A stretch of 64,000 nt of DNA from Betaproteobacteria bacterium (GTDB lineage: Bacteria > Pseudomonadota > Gammaproteobacteria > Burkholderiales > Rhodocyclaceae), in assembly GCA_020621865.1 (NCBI GenBank), contig JAHRYW010000002.1:74778-138777 (forward strand), in the 5' to 3' direction. The notes below the pieces were generated by a model, which saw only the letters and a list, made by a program, of their open reading frames with translations, did not search any database and was not told the DNA's origin. The position numbers and the translations under genes were made by a program. Shown here one piece after another: positions 25,585 to 36,605 of this stretch. Position 1 is the stretch's first letter. Every line of letters starts with the position of its first letter.

Positions 25585-25872
25585 TCGGTTTCTTGGTGGC
25601 TTGGGTTCGAAAGTGCGCTGCCAGAAGCTGAAGTGCTGAATGGTCTTGGCTTTTCGTCCTTTTGGAGTGGCCTTGCCGCCCCGGGTTCAACAATTCTGCT
25701 TGCCGGCGAATTCGTTTGAACCGTTTGTATCATGATTCTGCCGCAGCGTTGAATTTTTACCGGCCATCGGCAATCTCTGGACAGCCCGGCCAGAGTACGG
25801 ATAATCGAAAAGAGCTGCACAACGGGCAGCGCACAAGCACAACAACAACCAGAAGACGGGTCTGGAGACGAT

Positions 25873-30065: not shown

Positions 30066-30410
30066 ATGACCAAGGAAGAAATCGCCCGCGTCGCGCACGA
30101 AGTGAATCGCGCCTATTGCGAGGCGCTCGGCGATCACAGCCAGCCGGCCTGGGAAGAGGCGCCGCAATGGCAGCGGGAGAGCGCGCTGCACGTCGTCGAG
30201 ATGCACCTGAACGACCCCGCGGCCGGCCCGCAGGCCAGTCACGAAGCGTGGATGGCGCAGAAGCTGGCCGAGGGCTGGAAGCTCGGGCCGGTGAAGAACC
30301 CGGACGCCAGGGAGCACCCCTGCCTGGTGCCCTTCGACGAGCTGCCGGTGGAACAGAAGGTCAAGGATTACCTGTTTCGCGGCGTCGTCCGGGCGCTTTC
30401 TACCAGCTAG
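30066..30410 (+). CDS. RyR (ryanodine-receptor-type) domain protein
   Basis: IARVAHEVNRAYCEALGDHSQPAWEEAPQWQRESALHVVEMHL...HEAWMAQKLAEGWKLGPVKNPDAREHPCLVPFDELPVEQKVKDYLFRGVV. Confidence 0.88.
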   Translation: MTKEEIARVAHEVNRAYCEALGDHSQPAWEEAPQWQRESALHVVEMHLNDPAAGPQASHEAWMAQKLAEGWKLGPVKNPDAREHPCLVPFDELPVEQKVKDYLFRGVVRALSTS

Positions 30411-31054
30411 GCCTTTCGCTGCCGCCGGCGCCACCACAGCGCCCACTCGGCTCCGGCATAGAGCGCCAGCAGACCTAGCACCAAGGCGCGGGCCAGGCCC
30501 AGTTGATCGGCGGCATTCGGCGCCAGGGCACCAACGGTGTATTTGGTGGCGATGACGATGGCCGGTACGGCGACCGCAGCCCGCAGCGCGACCAAGCGCC
30601 ACGGGTAGGGTCGGCCGATGGCGTCGGCCAGGCGGCTGCTGTCCTGGGCCCAGGCTTCCTCGCGCAGGCTGACCGCCTGGCGGGCGACGAGGCCGCGCAG
30701 GTCGTCCGGCAGGGCGTCGCCGGCCGGTAGTTCGGCACCCTGCAGCAGCACCGGGATCACCGTCTTGCCGAGGCGCAGGGCGGTGGCGATCTCGATGCGC
30801 ACGAAGTCAGGCTCCGGCCGCTGCAGGCGGGCGTTCAGCTCGGCCAGCCAGCGCTTGCCGATCAGCACGATGACGGCTTGCGTGCCGGCCAGTTCGCGCT
30901 GCAACACGTCGGCGAAATCCTCGCCGGCCCGGATGTCGTCGGCATCGCGAAAGACGCAGGCGGCGCCCATCAGGCGTTCCAGCGAATCGGCCAGGCGGCC
31001 GGCCTCGCCGGTCGTGTCGCTGCGCCGGTAGCTGATGAACAGGGGGTTGGCCAT
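30407..31054 (-). CDS. TIR-domain protein with C-terminal transmembrane segments
   Basis: LFISYRRSDTTGEAGRLADSLERLMG...FRDADDIRAGEDFADVLQREL...VIVLIGKRWL; hydrophobic C-terminus. Confidence 0.85.
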   Translation of the reverse strand: MANPLFISYRRSDTTGEAGRLADSLERLMGAACVFRDADDIRAGEDFADVLQRELAGTQAVIVLIGKRWLAELNARLQRPEPDFVRIEIATALRLGKTVIPVLLQGAELPAGDALPDDLRGLVARQAVSLREEAWAQDSSRLADAIGRPYPWRLVALRAAVAVPAIVIATKYTVGALAPNAADQLGLARALVLGLLALYAGAEWALWWRRRQRKA

Positions 31055-32463: not shown

Positions 32464-32509
32464 GAATGCTACGGTCGGCCTCGAAAATCAGCCAAAATCA
32501 AAAAATTCA
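32464..32509 (+). repeat. Dispersed repeat copy F, short subtype, at 3' end of DinB-like gene
   Basis: AATGCTACGGTCGGCCTCGAAAATCAGCCAAAATCAAAAAATTC. Confidence 0.88.
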
Positions 32510-33106
32510 GACCGTCGAGGTCGCCAAGCGTTTCATCTGCAGTGCCACGATGCGCTGCAACTGGCGCCGATGGGCCAGCGTATGCATCGCCGACAGCGCA
32601 TGCCAGCCGCGCAGGTCGAGTTCGCCAAACCAGGGATGGGCGTGGCGCAGCGGGGTGCGCAAATCGCCGAGCGTGTCGATCAGCCGCACATAGTCGTCGA
32701 CCGCCGCCCGCAGCAAACCCTGCTGCTCAGCACCGGCCCCGGGCACCGGCTTGACCTCGGCAATACGCACCTCGCGCCCGAACGCTGTGTTGCCCGAGAG
32801 GGCTTCGGCCAACTGGCGGATACCGGTATCGACGATGACCAGATGCTGCAGCACCATGTTGGCCGACCAGCAGCGGCTGCTGTCCTCCAGCCCTGTCACC
32901 CGCGCCAGCAGGACCGGTTCGCAAGCCAGCGAATCCGGCAGGCTGGCCGCCAGGGCCAGCGCCGCCTCCGTCTCCCGCCGCAGCCAGCGGCTCAGCGCAT
33001 CCTTGCTCAGGAGCGCGCGCAACGTCTGCAGGAAGGCGCTGGAAATCCAGCGTTCCAATGCCGGCAGGCCGGCACCGGGTGGGGCGAGGTTGGCGGACTT
33101 GGTCAT
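32507..33106 (-). CDS. DinB-superfamily-like hypothetical protein
   Basis: SANMVLQHLVIVDTGIRQL...HAHPWFGELDLRGWHALSAMHTLAHRRQLQRI. Confidence 0.7.
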   Translation of the reverse strand: MTKSANLAPPGAGLPALERWISSAFLQTLRALLSKDALSRWLRRETEAALALAASLPDSLACEPVLLARVTGLEDSSRCWSANMVLQHLVIVDTGIRQLAEALSGNTAFGREVRIAEVKPVPGAGAEQQGLLRAAVDDYVRLIDTLGDLRTPLRHAHPWFGELDLRGWHALSAMHTLAHRRQLQRIVALQMKRLATSTV

Positions 33107-33125: not shown

Positions 33126-33578
33126 TCAAATCGACTCTGACCCGTTTTGGTTAGTAACCTCGGCTTTCAGATGCTCTGGTGAAGAAATGCCAGACCGCGC
33201 GATTAAGTAGCCGATGTCTTCAGCTTGAGCCTTCGAGGCGATAAAGGGTCTCTTCCATCGGTCCACTTTGAATGTGGCTCCAGCAAACACGCAGGTCCAA
33301 ACCATTTCAGCCACTGCCTCTGGTGCTATTGGCTCGTACTCAGTAGCCGAAACTAAGGTGACGTATTGTTTCAATCGCTGTAGAGCGAGTGCTGAACTCA
33401 TTTCGTGATTGATGAGCCTGGCGGTACGAACGAGAGTAACGATATTTCCGGTTCTTTCCGCCCACTCTAACGGCAGCCAACCATTGACTCGCTCATTTGC
33501 CAGGGCAGCGTTTGAAGCAAGCGCTTTCTCAATTGCGTCGTGATCGTGGGAAACAATGGCACTTGTGAGCTCGGTCAT
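33126..33578 (-). CDS. Ankyrin-like hypothetical protein, immediately after attC
   Basis: 150 aa, lower-GC codon usage than neighbours, start 7 nt after the attC end. Confidence 0.65.
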   Translation of the reverse strand: MTELTSAIVSHDHDAIEKALASNAALANERVNGWLPLEWAERTGNIVTLVRTARLINHEMSSALALQRLKQYVTLVSATEYEPIAPEAVAEMVWTCVFAGATFKVDRWKRPFIASKAQAEDIGYLIARSGISSPEHLKAEVTNQNGSESI

Positions 33579-33584
33579 GAGAAT

Positions 33585-33655
33585 GCCTAACGTCTGACAT
33601 AACCGGCGCTGCGCGGCTTCATCGCGCAGCGTCCGGGTTGATGGATGGGTTGGGC
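33585..33655 (-). other. Integron attC-like recombination site
   Basis: Minus strand GCCCAAC...GTTAGGC core boxes (RYYYAAC / GTTRRRY) flanking an imperfect palindrome AACCCGGACGCTGCGCG-ATGAAGC-CGCGCAGCGCCGGTT, 71 bp, directly after the stop of 33657..34478. Confidence 0.8.
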
Positions 33656-33656
33656 G

Positions 33657-34478
33657 TCATTCGTCTCTCGGCTCTGCGTCGATGGAGTTCTCCAACCGCT
33701 CCTGCTCCAATAAACGAGCCCCGCGCTCTACTACGGCAAAGAGTCGGCGCTCAATCTCCATAAGTGCGTCGGTGGCCTCGCGCAGGTCGAGCCGAGCGCG
33801 CCTTGCCAAAAGGAAGACGGCGGCTAGACGATCGCCAGAGAGCAAGAACTCCATCAATTCCTTGAGTACTTCGTCTGACGGGGCAATTCCACCAGTCTCC
33901 GCCACCTCCTTCTTGAGGAAAGCAAATCGCTCCGGTGTGAGCCAAGTCACCCGTGGCAGCGACTCCACAACCTTTGCTAGTTCCCCTCTCTGAATCGGCG
34001 TTCCCGATCTCTCAATGAGCGCCGGCAGATCCTGAGAAACTCGGACCGCCAGATCTTCAGGGCTCGTAAAGAAGCTCACGACGTGGCTCGACTTAAGCGT
34101 GCGCTTGAACTCTCGCAACTTCTCGGCTGGCTCCCCGAATTCGATGTACTTCGGCAGAACAGGCTGCCGCTCTTCGTCGAGCAAGTAAATCAAGCTTGGA
34201 AGGCGGAGCCTCTGCGCCTCCTCGTATTCAAGTTGAGTGAGTGATTTGCCTGACTCCCCATCAATGCTCCCGTACCGCATGGCGAAGATGCCGATGTAGA
34301 AGCTACAACTGCGAACTATGCGAAGACATTCGTCTCGTGGCGTCTCAGGGAGAGCGCCGAAGTACTCCATCCCTCGGACCACAGCTTCCAGCCTGTGTAG
34401 TGAGTCGCGCACTGCATTCCGATATGGCTGCAGGTCAACGAAGGTCGAACTGACGAAGACGGGAACAGTATTTCGCAT
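33657..34478 (-). CDS. DUF4062 domain protein carried as gene-cassette cargo
   Basis: VPVFVSSTFVDLQPYRNAVRDSLHRLEAVVRGMEYFGALPETPRDECLRIVRSCSFYIGIFAMRYGSID. Confidence 0.85.
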   Translation of the reverse strand: MRNTVPVFVSSTFVDLQPYRNAVRDSLHRLEAVVRGMEYFGALPETPRDECLRIVRSCSFYIGIFAMRYGSIDGESGKSLTQLEYEEAQRLRLPSLIYLLDEERQPVLPKYIEFGEPAEKLREFKRTLKSSHVVSFFTSPEDLAVRVSQDLPALIERSGTPIQRGELAKVVESLPRVTWLTPERFAFLKKEVAETGGIAPSDEVLKELMEFLLSGDRLAAVFLLARRARLDLREATDALMEIERRLFAVVERGARLLEQERLENSIDAEPRDE

Positions 34479-34488
34479 GCTCTATGAC

Positions 34489-34495
34489 GCCCAAC
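34489..34495 (-). other. Second integron core site (GTTGGGC on minus strand), upstream boundary of the cassette
   Basis: TAGTTGGGCGTCATAGAGCATG just upstream of the DUF4062 start codon. Confidence 0.55.
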
Positions 34496-34707
34496 TATTA
34501 AGTAAGCCTCCCAAAAAGGCAGGCGATTTCGTCAATTAAGAATTCAAAATTTGTTATGAATCTTTTGGATGCCGTGAAATTAGGCCTCCCAAAATAGATT
34601 TCAAAGCCATCCTCCTAGTAGTGATATGTTGATTGGGTGAAATGGCTTGACCCTGAAAGGATACGGCAGCGGGGTGCTGGCGTCTATTTGAAACGGATAT
34701 TTGGTTC

Positions 34708-36531
34708 CTACTGCCCGCGCAAGAACAGCTTGTCGAGCTGCTCCATCGTCAGCTCCGTCCACGTCGGTCGGCCGTGGTTGCATTGGCCGGCGCGTTCGGT
34801 TTCTTCCATTTGGCGGAGTAGGGCGTTCATCTCCGGCACCGTCAGTTGGCGGCGGGCGCGGACGGCGCCGTGACAGGCCATGGTGGCGAGCAGTTCGTTG
34901 CGGCGGGCGGTGGCGAGCTGGGTGATGCCGTGTTCGCGCAGTTCGGTGATCAGCGATTTGGCCAGCGCGGCGGGGTCGCCGCTTTGCAATAGCGCAGGGA
35001 CGGCGCGCACGCCCAACTGGTTGGGGCCGAGCGGGGCGATCTGGAAGCCGAGGTCGGCCAGCGCTTCGGCGTGTTCTTCGACGGCGGCGATGTCGAGCGG
35101 GTCGGCGGCGAAGACGGCCGGGATGAGCAGGGCCTGGGTGGCGATCTGGCGGTGGTCGAAAGCGGCCTTCAGTTTTTCGTAGAGGATGCGCTCGTGCGCG
35201 GCGTGCATGTCGATCAGGATCAGGCCGCGGGCGTTCTGGGCGAGGATGTAGATGCCGTGCAGCTGGGCCAGCGCGTAGCCGAGCGGCGGGCCGTCGCGGT
35301 CAGCGGTTTCGATGGGCTGGAATTGCGGGGCGACTTCGGGGCGAGGGGCGGGCGACTGGCCGATGTCTTGCGCGGCACGGGCGAAGGCGAGGTAGGCCGC
35401 GGCGGCCGGTTCGGCGACGCCGAGGCTGGCCTGGTGGCGCAGCGGCGGGGCGTATTCGAAATTTGGCTGATTTTTCGGGGTGACCGTAGCATTTGAGTAT
35501 TCGGCGTTCGCTGTGCCGCGTTCAACCAGCGCCGGGGCCGCTTCGGCCTGCACCGGCGCGGCCAGCGTGCGCTGGATGGCGTGGAAGACGAACTGGTGCA
35601 TGGCGCGCGAGTCGCGGAAGCGGACTTCGGTCTTGGCCGGGTGCACATTGACGTCGACCAGCGCCGGGTCGATGTTGACGAATAGGCAGACGGCCGGCTG
35701 GCGGCTGCCGTGCAGTACATCGCGGTAGGCTTCGCGCAGGGCGTGGCTGATGATCTTGTCGCGCACGAAGCGGCCGTTGACGAAGACGTACTGGCCGTCC
35801 TTGGCGTCGGTGGCGCGGGTCGGGTCGATGGCGAAGCCGGCGATGGCCAGCGCGCCGGCGCCGGCCTCGACGGCGCGGGCGGCGCCAAGGAAGTCGTCGC
35901 CGAGGATGTCGGCGATGCGCCGCGGTGCGTCGGCCGGGGCGAGCTGGAACAGGTTGCGGCCATTGTGGGTCAGGCTGATCGCGACATCCGGGCGGGTCAG
36001 GGCCAGGCGCTTGACGGCGTCGGCGCAGTGGGCGAACTCGGTGCTTTCCGACTTCAGGAATTTGCGCCGGGCCGGGGTGTTGAAATAAAGGTCGCGCATC
36101 TCGACCACGGTGCCGGCCATCAGGGCGGCAGGTTCAGGTTCGGCGCCCGGCTCGCCGCGCAGCTTCCAGGCGTGGGTGGCGCCGCGTTCACGGCTGGTGA
36201 TGCTCAGGCGGGCGACCGAGGCGACCGAGGCCAGCGCCTCGCCGCGAAAGCCGAGGGTGCCGACGCGCTCCAGGTCGTCGAGGCTGGCGATCTTGGAGGT
36301 GGCATGGCGGGTCAGGGCCAGGGCCAGCTGGTCCTTGGCGATGCCGCAGCCGTCGTCGGTAATCCGGATCAGCTTGACGCCGCCTTCCTCCAGATGCACC
36401 TGGATCGCCTTGCTGCCGGCATCGAGGCTGTTTTCGAGGAGTTCCTTGAGGACGGAGGCAGGTCTTTCGACCACTTCGCCAGCGGCAATCTGGCTGATCA
36501 GCAGGTCGGGGAGGCGGGCAATGGTCGGCAT
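34708..36531 (-). CDS. mutL: DNA mismatch repair protein MutL
   Basis: IARLPDLLISQIAAGEVVERPASVLKELLENSLDAGS; DDGCGI; GFRGEAL. Confidence 0.97.
   Translation of the reverse strand: MPTIARLPDLLISQIAAGEVVERPASVLKELLENSLDAGSKAIQVHLEEGGVKLIRITDDGCGIAKDQLALALTRHATSKIASLDDLERVGTLGFRGEALASVASVARLSITSRERGATHAWKLRGEPGAEPEPAALMAGTVVEMRDLYFNTPARRKFLKSESTEFAHCADAVKRLALTRPDVAISLTHNGRNLFQLAPADAPRRIADILGDDFLGAARAVEAGAGALAIAGFAIDPTRATDAKDGQYVFVNGRFVRDKIISHALREAYRDVLHGSRQPAVCLFVNIDPALVDVNVHPAKTEVRFRDSRAMHQFVFHAIQRTLAAPVQAEAAPALVERGTANAEYSNATVTPKNQPNFEYAPPLRHQASLGVAEPAAAAYLAFARAAQDIGQSPAPRPEVAPQFQPIETADRDGPPLGYALAQLHGIYILAQNARGLILIDMHAAHERILYEKLKAAFDHRQIATQALLIPAVFAADPLDIAAVEEHAEALADLGFQIAPLGPNQLGVRAVPALLQSGDPAALAKSLITELREHGITQLATARRNELLATMACHGAVRARRQLTVPEMNALLRQMEETERAGQCNHGRPTWTELTMEQLDKLFLRGQ
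35454..35494 (-). repeat. Dispersed repeat copy G, short subtype, in frame inside mutL linker
   Basis: Revcomp AAATGCTACGGTCACCCCGAAAAATCAGCCAAATTTCGAAT encoding NATVTPKNQPNFEY. Confidence 0.88.
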
Positions 36532-36605
36532 GCCGGGATTATCCCAGATTGCTCCTTGATAGCGGCAGGCCATCGTCGCCATAGGACTAACTCACTGGCA
36601 ACTGA

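What the first reader, a model, noticed from the sequence alone, without database searches (positions are those of the whole stretch)
33585..34495. Integrase-less integron gene cassette next to mutL
On the minus strand the DUF4062 ORF is bounded by G/TTGGGC (34495-34489) upstream. Directly after its stop comes a 71 bp attC-like site, GCCCAACCCATCCATCAACCCGGACGCTGCGCGATGAAGCCGCGCAGCGCCGGTTATGTCAGACGTTAGGC, ending G/TTAGGC. Core boxes match RYYYAAC/GTTRRRY and the interior forms a bulged hairpin. The region is visibly AT-richer than its surroundings and no intI ORF lies in the window, so this is a stray cassette or a CALIN fragment.
Basis: partly seen in the sequence, partly recalled or inferred. 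Interest (0 to 1): 0.78.

Follow-up and report, generated by a model that had tools for sequence, protein, structure and literature searches.

The report
Integron landing site without its integrase
Next to mutL lies a true integron gene cassette (carrying a probable anti-phage NADase gene) docked at the integron's own attI landing site, whose integrase gene is missing; a sister species has the same integrase-less site loaded with different genes, which suggests it is refilled by an integrase encoded elsewhere.

Summary
An attC model trained on 20 other attC sites of the genus finds exactly one site in the window, at 33585-33655 (67.7 bits, E 1.9e-15). The DUF4062 gene sits in a standard 904-bp cassette between two G/TT crossover points. 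The interpretation needs changing. The upstream "G/TTGGGC" is not a stray insertion point. It is the right end of an attI site (34489-34612) that is 78-80% identical to the sequence directly in front of intact intI genes in four same-genus genomes. So this is an integron platform (attI, one complete cassette, a second gene lacking its attC) without intI. The closest relative, G214, has the same intI-less mutL-attI junction. Identity between the two (91%) stops exactly at the GTT crossover; different cassettes follow, and identity resumes at the DinB_2 gene. G214 carries two intact intI genes elsewhere. The simplest reading is that intI was lost in a common ancestor and the orphan attI was later reloaded by an integrase acting in trans (inferred, not shown). 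The cargo is a DUF4062 TIR-like NADase homologue whose two nearest relatives found are also integron cassettes. attI-bearing integrase-less arrays have precedents, so novelty is moderate.

The parts
34708..36582 (-). mutL, left neighbour of the platform
   Evidence: MutL_C and other Pfam hits
34613..34707 (-). mutL-attI spacer; its mutL-proximal part is shared with G005, which has no integron here; shared with G214 with only 1-nt gaps
   Evidence: alignments
34489..34612 (-). attI site without adjacent intI; R box GTTGGGC 34495-34489; crossover between G34495 and T34494; repeated motif TTTTGGGAGGCYTA within 34578-34594 and 34500-34516
   Evidence: 78-80% identity to attI of four intact intI loci; alignment; repeats
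33591..34494 (-). complete gene cassette 1 (904 bp), from TTGGGC to the G of the attC R' box
   Evidence: core boxes read directly; identity to G214 ends at the crossover triplet
33657..34478 (-). DUF4062 gene, 273 aa, TIR-like NADase homologue
   Evidence: Pfam PF13271 E 3.7e-22; KpSwz chain 10wc E 1.2e-9; AF2 model with TIR matches
33585..33655 (-). attC site, 71 nt
   Evidence: covariance model R1 67.7 bits, E 1.9e-15; bottom-strand fold z -5.0
34484..34495 (.). left arm of a 12-nt perfect inverted repeat joining the two ends of the cassette (GTTGGGCGTCAT)
33649..33660 (.). right arm of that inverted repeat (ATGACGCCCAAC)
33126..33578 (-). second gene, 150 aa, starting 7 nt after the attC; probably cassette 2 with its attC deleted
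   Evidence: ORF; no attC after it; no homologue found
32507..33106 (-). DinB_2-like gene, right neighbour; identity to G214 resumes at its start
   Evidence: Pfam DUF1569 just above cut-off, DinB_2 just below; comparison

Best explanation
The locus is a chromosomal integron platform without its integrase: an attI site downstream of mutL, loaded with a DUF4062 gene cassette and a second gene that looks like a cassette lacking its attC. SHOWN by sequence: the attC, the cassette ends, the attI homology, no intI at this locus, and the same intI-less junction in a second species carrying other cassettes, with identity stopping at the crossover triplet. INFERRED: an integron once stood here and its intI was deleted back to about its start codon (or attI was copied without it) before the two species split. 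Because attI kept its core, an integrase made elsewhere in the cell could recombine the attC of a circular cassette into it in trans, so cassettes were exchanged after the loss. No intact intI is seen in the present (incomplete) genome, so the cassette is probably frozen there now. The cargo is most likely a TIR-like NADase of the DUF4062 anti-phage type; how it is expressed is not known.
For: attC: 67.7 bits, E 1.9e-15, only hit in the window. attI: 78-80% identity to the DNA in front of intact intI genes of G211, G191, G214, G208; homology in L103 starts one base before the intI start codon; the 22-nt core is identical to those four. No intI on the contig and none over the cut-off in the genome. 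G214: same junction, no intI there, intI at C6 and C30. 91% identity up to window 34493, then unrelated DNA except the attC, then identity from 33104. Cargo: DUF4062 and KpSwz matches, TIR-like model, nearest homologues next to attC in L152 and L094.
Against: No recombination was tested. The own genome is 75% complete, so intI could be missing only from the assembly. The G214 mutL-attI has two changes in the core. No sigma-70-type promoter match at the site. The Glu of KpSwz that I take to be the catalytic one aligns to Q82. The loss-before-split step rests on two genomes.
Confidence: 0.7

Rival explanations
1. Stray cassette(s) inserted by IntI at a non-attI (attG-like) chromosomal site, or a CALIN fragment.
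For: No intI near; only one attC; a two-attC array without intI exists elsewhere in the genome.
Against: The upstream sequence is homologous to attI of intact integrons over about 120 bp, not just at the crossover, and the same site is present in G214 with other cassettes.
Confidence: 0.08
2. Dead relic: an ordinary integron stood at mutL, each species changed its cassettes while intI was still in cis, and intI was then lost separately in each; nothing was loaded in trans.
For: intI loss is common: remnants of intI codons 1-48, 4-32 and 1-30 stand beside other attI copies in the genus, and about a third of intI genes were pseudogenes in an older survey (PMC2426708).
Against: The mutL-attI junction is the same in both species with only 1-nt gaps; two independent deletions with the same ends are unlikely.
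Confidence: 0.17
3. The cassette content was swapped by homologous recombination with imported DNA (mutL/attI on one side, DinB_2 on the other); the exact GTT boundary was made by an integrase in the donor cell, not here.
For: The segment between mutL and the next backbone gene varies among relatives that have no attI there.
Against: The donor would need the same attI platform, which was found at mutL only in G000 and G214 among 72 genus genomes with mutL.
Confidence: 0.15
4. Assembly error or chance resemblance.
For: The window comes from an incomplete assembly (75%, 17 contigs).
Against: attC E 1.9e-15; attI match E 1.2e-34 in another genome; the site is internal to a contig of at least 138 kb, and an independent genome has the same junction inside a 237-kb contig.
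Confidence: 0.02

Closest known systems
Integrase-less array with its own attI in Shewanella prophage M16-3 (PMC9892861)
   Same: A complete integron and an integrase-less array in one genome, each array beginning with the same attI.
   Different: There inside a cryptic prophage; here between mutL and a DinB_2-like gene, with one complete attC, and shared by two species with different cassettes.
Xanthomonas arrays with deleted or truncated intI, and CALINs away from ilvD (PMC12444791, PMC3826837)
   Same: Cassettes outlive the integrase at a chromosomal locus; in X. fuscans an attI remains next to a truncated intI.
   Different: There groups with the same intI lesion tend to share the same array; here the same intI-less junction carries different cassettes.
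CALIN (PMC9024848)
   Same: attC without neighbouring intI; said to be mobilisable in trans (PMC12444791).
   Different: Here an attI is present, and only one complete attC.
Delta-attI-type gene cassettes of mobile integrons (PMC12901181)
   Same: attI sequence found away from intI and recombined by IntI1.
   Different: There an attI fragment replaces the attC at the 3' end of a cassette; here an attI is the upstream landing site.
Swarozyc DUF4062 NADase, KpSwz (PMC13174449, a preprint)
   Same: DUF4062 TIR-like domain (E 1.2e-9 to KpSwz).
   Different: Carried as an integron cassette; different C-terminal part; Q82 where the presumed KpSwz catalytic Glu aligns.

Membership tests
Integron gene cassette | attC with RYYYAAC/GTTRRRY boxes and a structured, bulged hairpin | tested here: met
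   67.7 bits, E 1.9e-15; z -5.0
Integron gene cassette | Own 5' R box complementary to own R'' box, with an ORF between | tested here: met
   GTTGGGC/GCCCAAC inside a 12-nt perfect inverted repeat; ORF
Integron gene cassette | Recombined by an integron integrase | not testable with these tools
   needs an assay
Complete integron | attI site | tested here: met
   78-80% identity to attI of four intact loci
Complete integron | intI gene next to attI | tested here: not met
   no match over the cut-off in the genome and no remnant at mutL
CALIN | Cluster of attC sites (two or more by the IntegronFinder 2 default) | tested here: not met
   one attC in the window
CALIN | No integron integrase nearby | tested here: met
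attG insertion | Insertion site that is neither attI nor attC | tested here: not met
   the site is attI-like over about 120 bp
DUF4062 / Swarozyc NADase | DUF4062 domain with TIR-like fold | tested here: met
   AF2 pLDDT 75; TIR matches with probability 1.0 but E above 1e-3
DUF4062 / Swarozyc NADase | Catalytic Glu (E97 in KpSwz) | tested here: inconclusive
   E84 is invariant among six homologues, but the KpSwz Glu that I take as E97 (assuming a 15-residue numbering offset) aligns with Q82
DUF4062 / Swarozyc NADase | NAD+ hydrolysis and phage defence | not testable with these tools
   needs an assay

The most novel reading that the evidence does not exclude
Genomes of this genus carry satellite attI sites, without integrase, at several chromosomal positions; an integrase encoded at the main integron (hrpA locus) loads them in trans, so one integron works through several dispersed docking sites. 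Orphan attI copies outnumber intact intI-attI pairs of this family (7 against 4 matches in 77 genomes), and in G214 and G208 an orphan and an intact copy coexist.
Probability: 0.4. Interest if true: 0.72.

Novelty: new variant of a known kind. Interest (0 to 1): 0.5.

Why it matters
Integrase-less arrays are usually read as dead or stray. This locus gives sequence evidence that an attI can outlive its integrase and still change cassettes, which would mean that integron activity has to be judged per cell and not per locus. It also places a likely anti-phage NADase gene on integron cassettes: its two nearest relatives found, in another genus of the family and in another phylum, stand next to attC sites as well.

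Tried and rejected
Rfam gathering scan: no hits. ARAGORN: none. A second place in the window with matching core boxes, 25685-25754, rejected: weak fold and not found by the model. Weak TIGR02249 hits on C10 and C17 taken as other tyrosine recombinases: below the cut-off, and all 14 control genomes also ring below it. intI remnant at the window's mutL: none by tblastn. Secondary structure of the mutL-attI spacer: not unusual (z -1.35). Homologues of the second ORF: none in 299 family genomes, plasmids or NCBIfam, and only a sub-cut-off Pfam match. attI at mutL elsewhere in the genus: only G214, among 72 genomes with mutL. hrpA locus of the own genome: no integron. PADLOC: nothing for the DUF4062 protein.

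Full report
OBSERVATION. On the minus strand, mutL ends at 34708; a DUF4062 ORF runs 34478-33657; GTTGGGC stands at 34495-34489 and a 71-nt GCCCAAC...GTTAGGC at 33655-33585. Regional GC is 0.50-0.58 against 0.68-0.72 on both sides. An attC covariance model (R1) was built from 20 attC-like sites taken from intI-associated arrays of the same genus, leaving out the window site and two near-identical copies; its pairs covary (36 double-change cells against 14 +/- 3 shuffled). It finds one site in 64 kb: 33585-33655, 67.7 bits, E 1.9e-15. The bottom strand folds with R''/R' closed and bulges, z -5.0.

SAME attC ELSEWHERE. A 77-nt block holding this attC recurs at 98.7% in the array of G235, next to an intact intI, and at 94.8% in an intI-linked array of G219, each time behind an unrelated ORF. 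This fits the homogeneous attC sites reported for sedentary chromosomal integrons (PMC12901181).

THE UPSTREAM SITE IS attI. The 124 bp before the cassette body (34612-34489) match, at 78-80%, the DNA between intI and the first cassette in G211, G191, G214 and G208. In L103 (G214) the homology starts at position 1039, one base before the intI start codon (intI 1038-79). The core TTGGGAGGCTTACTTAATAGTT is identical in the window and those four, and the motif TTTTGGGAGGCYTA occurs twice, 78 bp apart. In the four genomes an hrpA-type helicase gene lies directly beyond the 3' end of intI. In the window genome the hrpA locus has no integron, no intI passes the family cut-off, and only a 44-codon C-terminal remnant exists on contig C14. 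The assembly is 75% complete, so absence elsewhere is not proven.

SISTER LOCUS. G214, the genome with the best match to the MutL C-terminal part (95%), has the same attI about 105 bp from mutL, no intI there, and intact intI genes at C6 and C30. Its first cassette gene is broken by what looks like an IS3-family element (judged from the ORFs); a 75-bit attC follows, then chromosome, then DinB_2. Window and G214 are 91% identical through mutL, spacer and attI up to 34493, the GTT of the crossover. The DNA is then unrelated except for the attC, and identity resumes at 33104, the DinB_2 start. The intI-less junction aligns with only 1-nt gaps. I infer one loss (or attI copying) event before the split and cassette exchange after it, which needs an integrase in trans in at least one lineage or donor. 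G005, G142, G003 and G233 have other genes downstream of mutL, and the attC model finds nothing there.

OTHER ORPHAN attI. The same attI family occurs without an adjacent intact intI in G188 (twice, with intI codons 1-48 and 4-32 left), G092 (codons 1-30), G007 and G208. In G208 and one G188 copy an attC follows in the right orientation; weaker attC matches follow the other G188 copy and the G007 copy. Counting the window and G214 mutL copies, 7 orphan attI stand against 4 intact pairs in 77 genomes.

CARGO. DUF4062 domains were reported in 2026 as TIR-like NADases with anti-phage activity (Swarozyc, PMC13174449, a preprint). The cassette protein aligns to the solved KpSwz chain (E 1.2e-9). 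Its AF2 model (pLDDT 75, pTM 0.54) matches plant TIR domains with Foldseek probability 1.0, but with TMt of only about 0.6 and E above 1e-3. Glu84 is invariant among six aligned homologues. The KpSwz Glu that I take to be catalytic E97, from an assumed 15-residue numbering offset, faces Q82, so activity is open. The nearest homologues look like cassettes too: L152 (G247, another genus, 48%), with attC on both sides, and a Spartobacteria MAG (L094, 62%), with a weaker attC match right after the stop (25 bits).

CASSETTE ENDS. Across 94 cassettes of the genus the two ends of the same cassette stay complementary about 4-5 bp beyond the 7-bp R boxes (3.0 of 6 against 1.95 +/- 0.11 with shuffled partners, 2.21 +/- 0.10 within the same R-box class, and 1.82 for the attC as it stands in the array). 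The window cassette has five such extra pairs. The arm is therefore longer in the excised circle than in the array. A possible role in insertion is my guess.

LITERATURE. An integrase-less array with its own attI is known in Shewanella prophage M16-3 (PMC9892861), and intI-deleted arrays in Xanthomonas (PMC12444791, PMC3826837). A full-text search for orphan or secondary attI gave two papers, whose titles do not bear on this and which I did not read. Hence a new variant of a known kind, not a new kind.

LIMITS. No recombination assay, no reads and no strain series were available. The trans-loading step, the expression of the cassette and the enzyme activity are inferences.

Noticed in passing
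window 34484-34495 / 33649-33660; 94 cassettes in L098-L117: The two ends of a given cassette are complementary about 4-5 bp beyond the R boxes (3.0 of 6 against 1.95 shuffled), so the attC arm is longer in the excised circle than in the array. I did not find this described in the one paper I checked for it (PMC3053210).
   Followed up: partly
L144 9577-9643 and 10276-10339 (own genome C3:193576-194338): A second array without intI in the own genome, with two attC sites (65.7 and 47.4 bits).
   Followed up: partly
L091 13146-13277 (own genome C14): Decayed intI C-terminal remnant (residues 276-319, 64% identity) beside an acyl-CoA-dehydrogenase-like gene.
   Followed up: partly
L130 13917-13777 (G214 mutL locus): First cassette ORF resembles a tyrosine-recombinase N-terminus (28% over 47 aa to IntI, E 0.13) and is broken by an IS3-like element.
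   Followed up: no
G188 C42:54925-56174: A more distant DUF4062 gene (34% identity) also lies between two attC matches.
   Followed up: no
G208, G092, G235 (several contigs or positions): Many attC matches lie far from any listed intI, so stray cassettes or integrase-less arrays seem common in this genus.
   Followed up: no
window 30407-31054: A TIR-like protein gene (FISYRRSDT..., judged by eye, no family search) lies about 2.6 kb downstream of the cassette; a 72% identical homologue lies near DinB_2 in G002.
   Followed up: no
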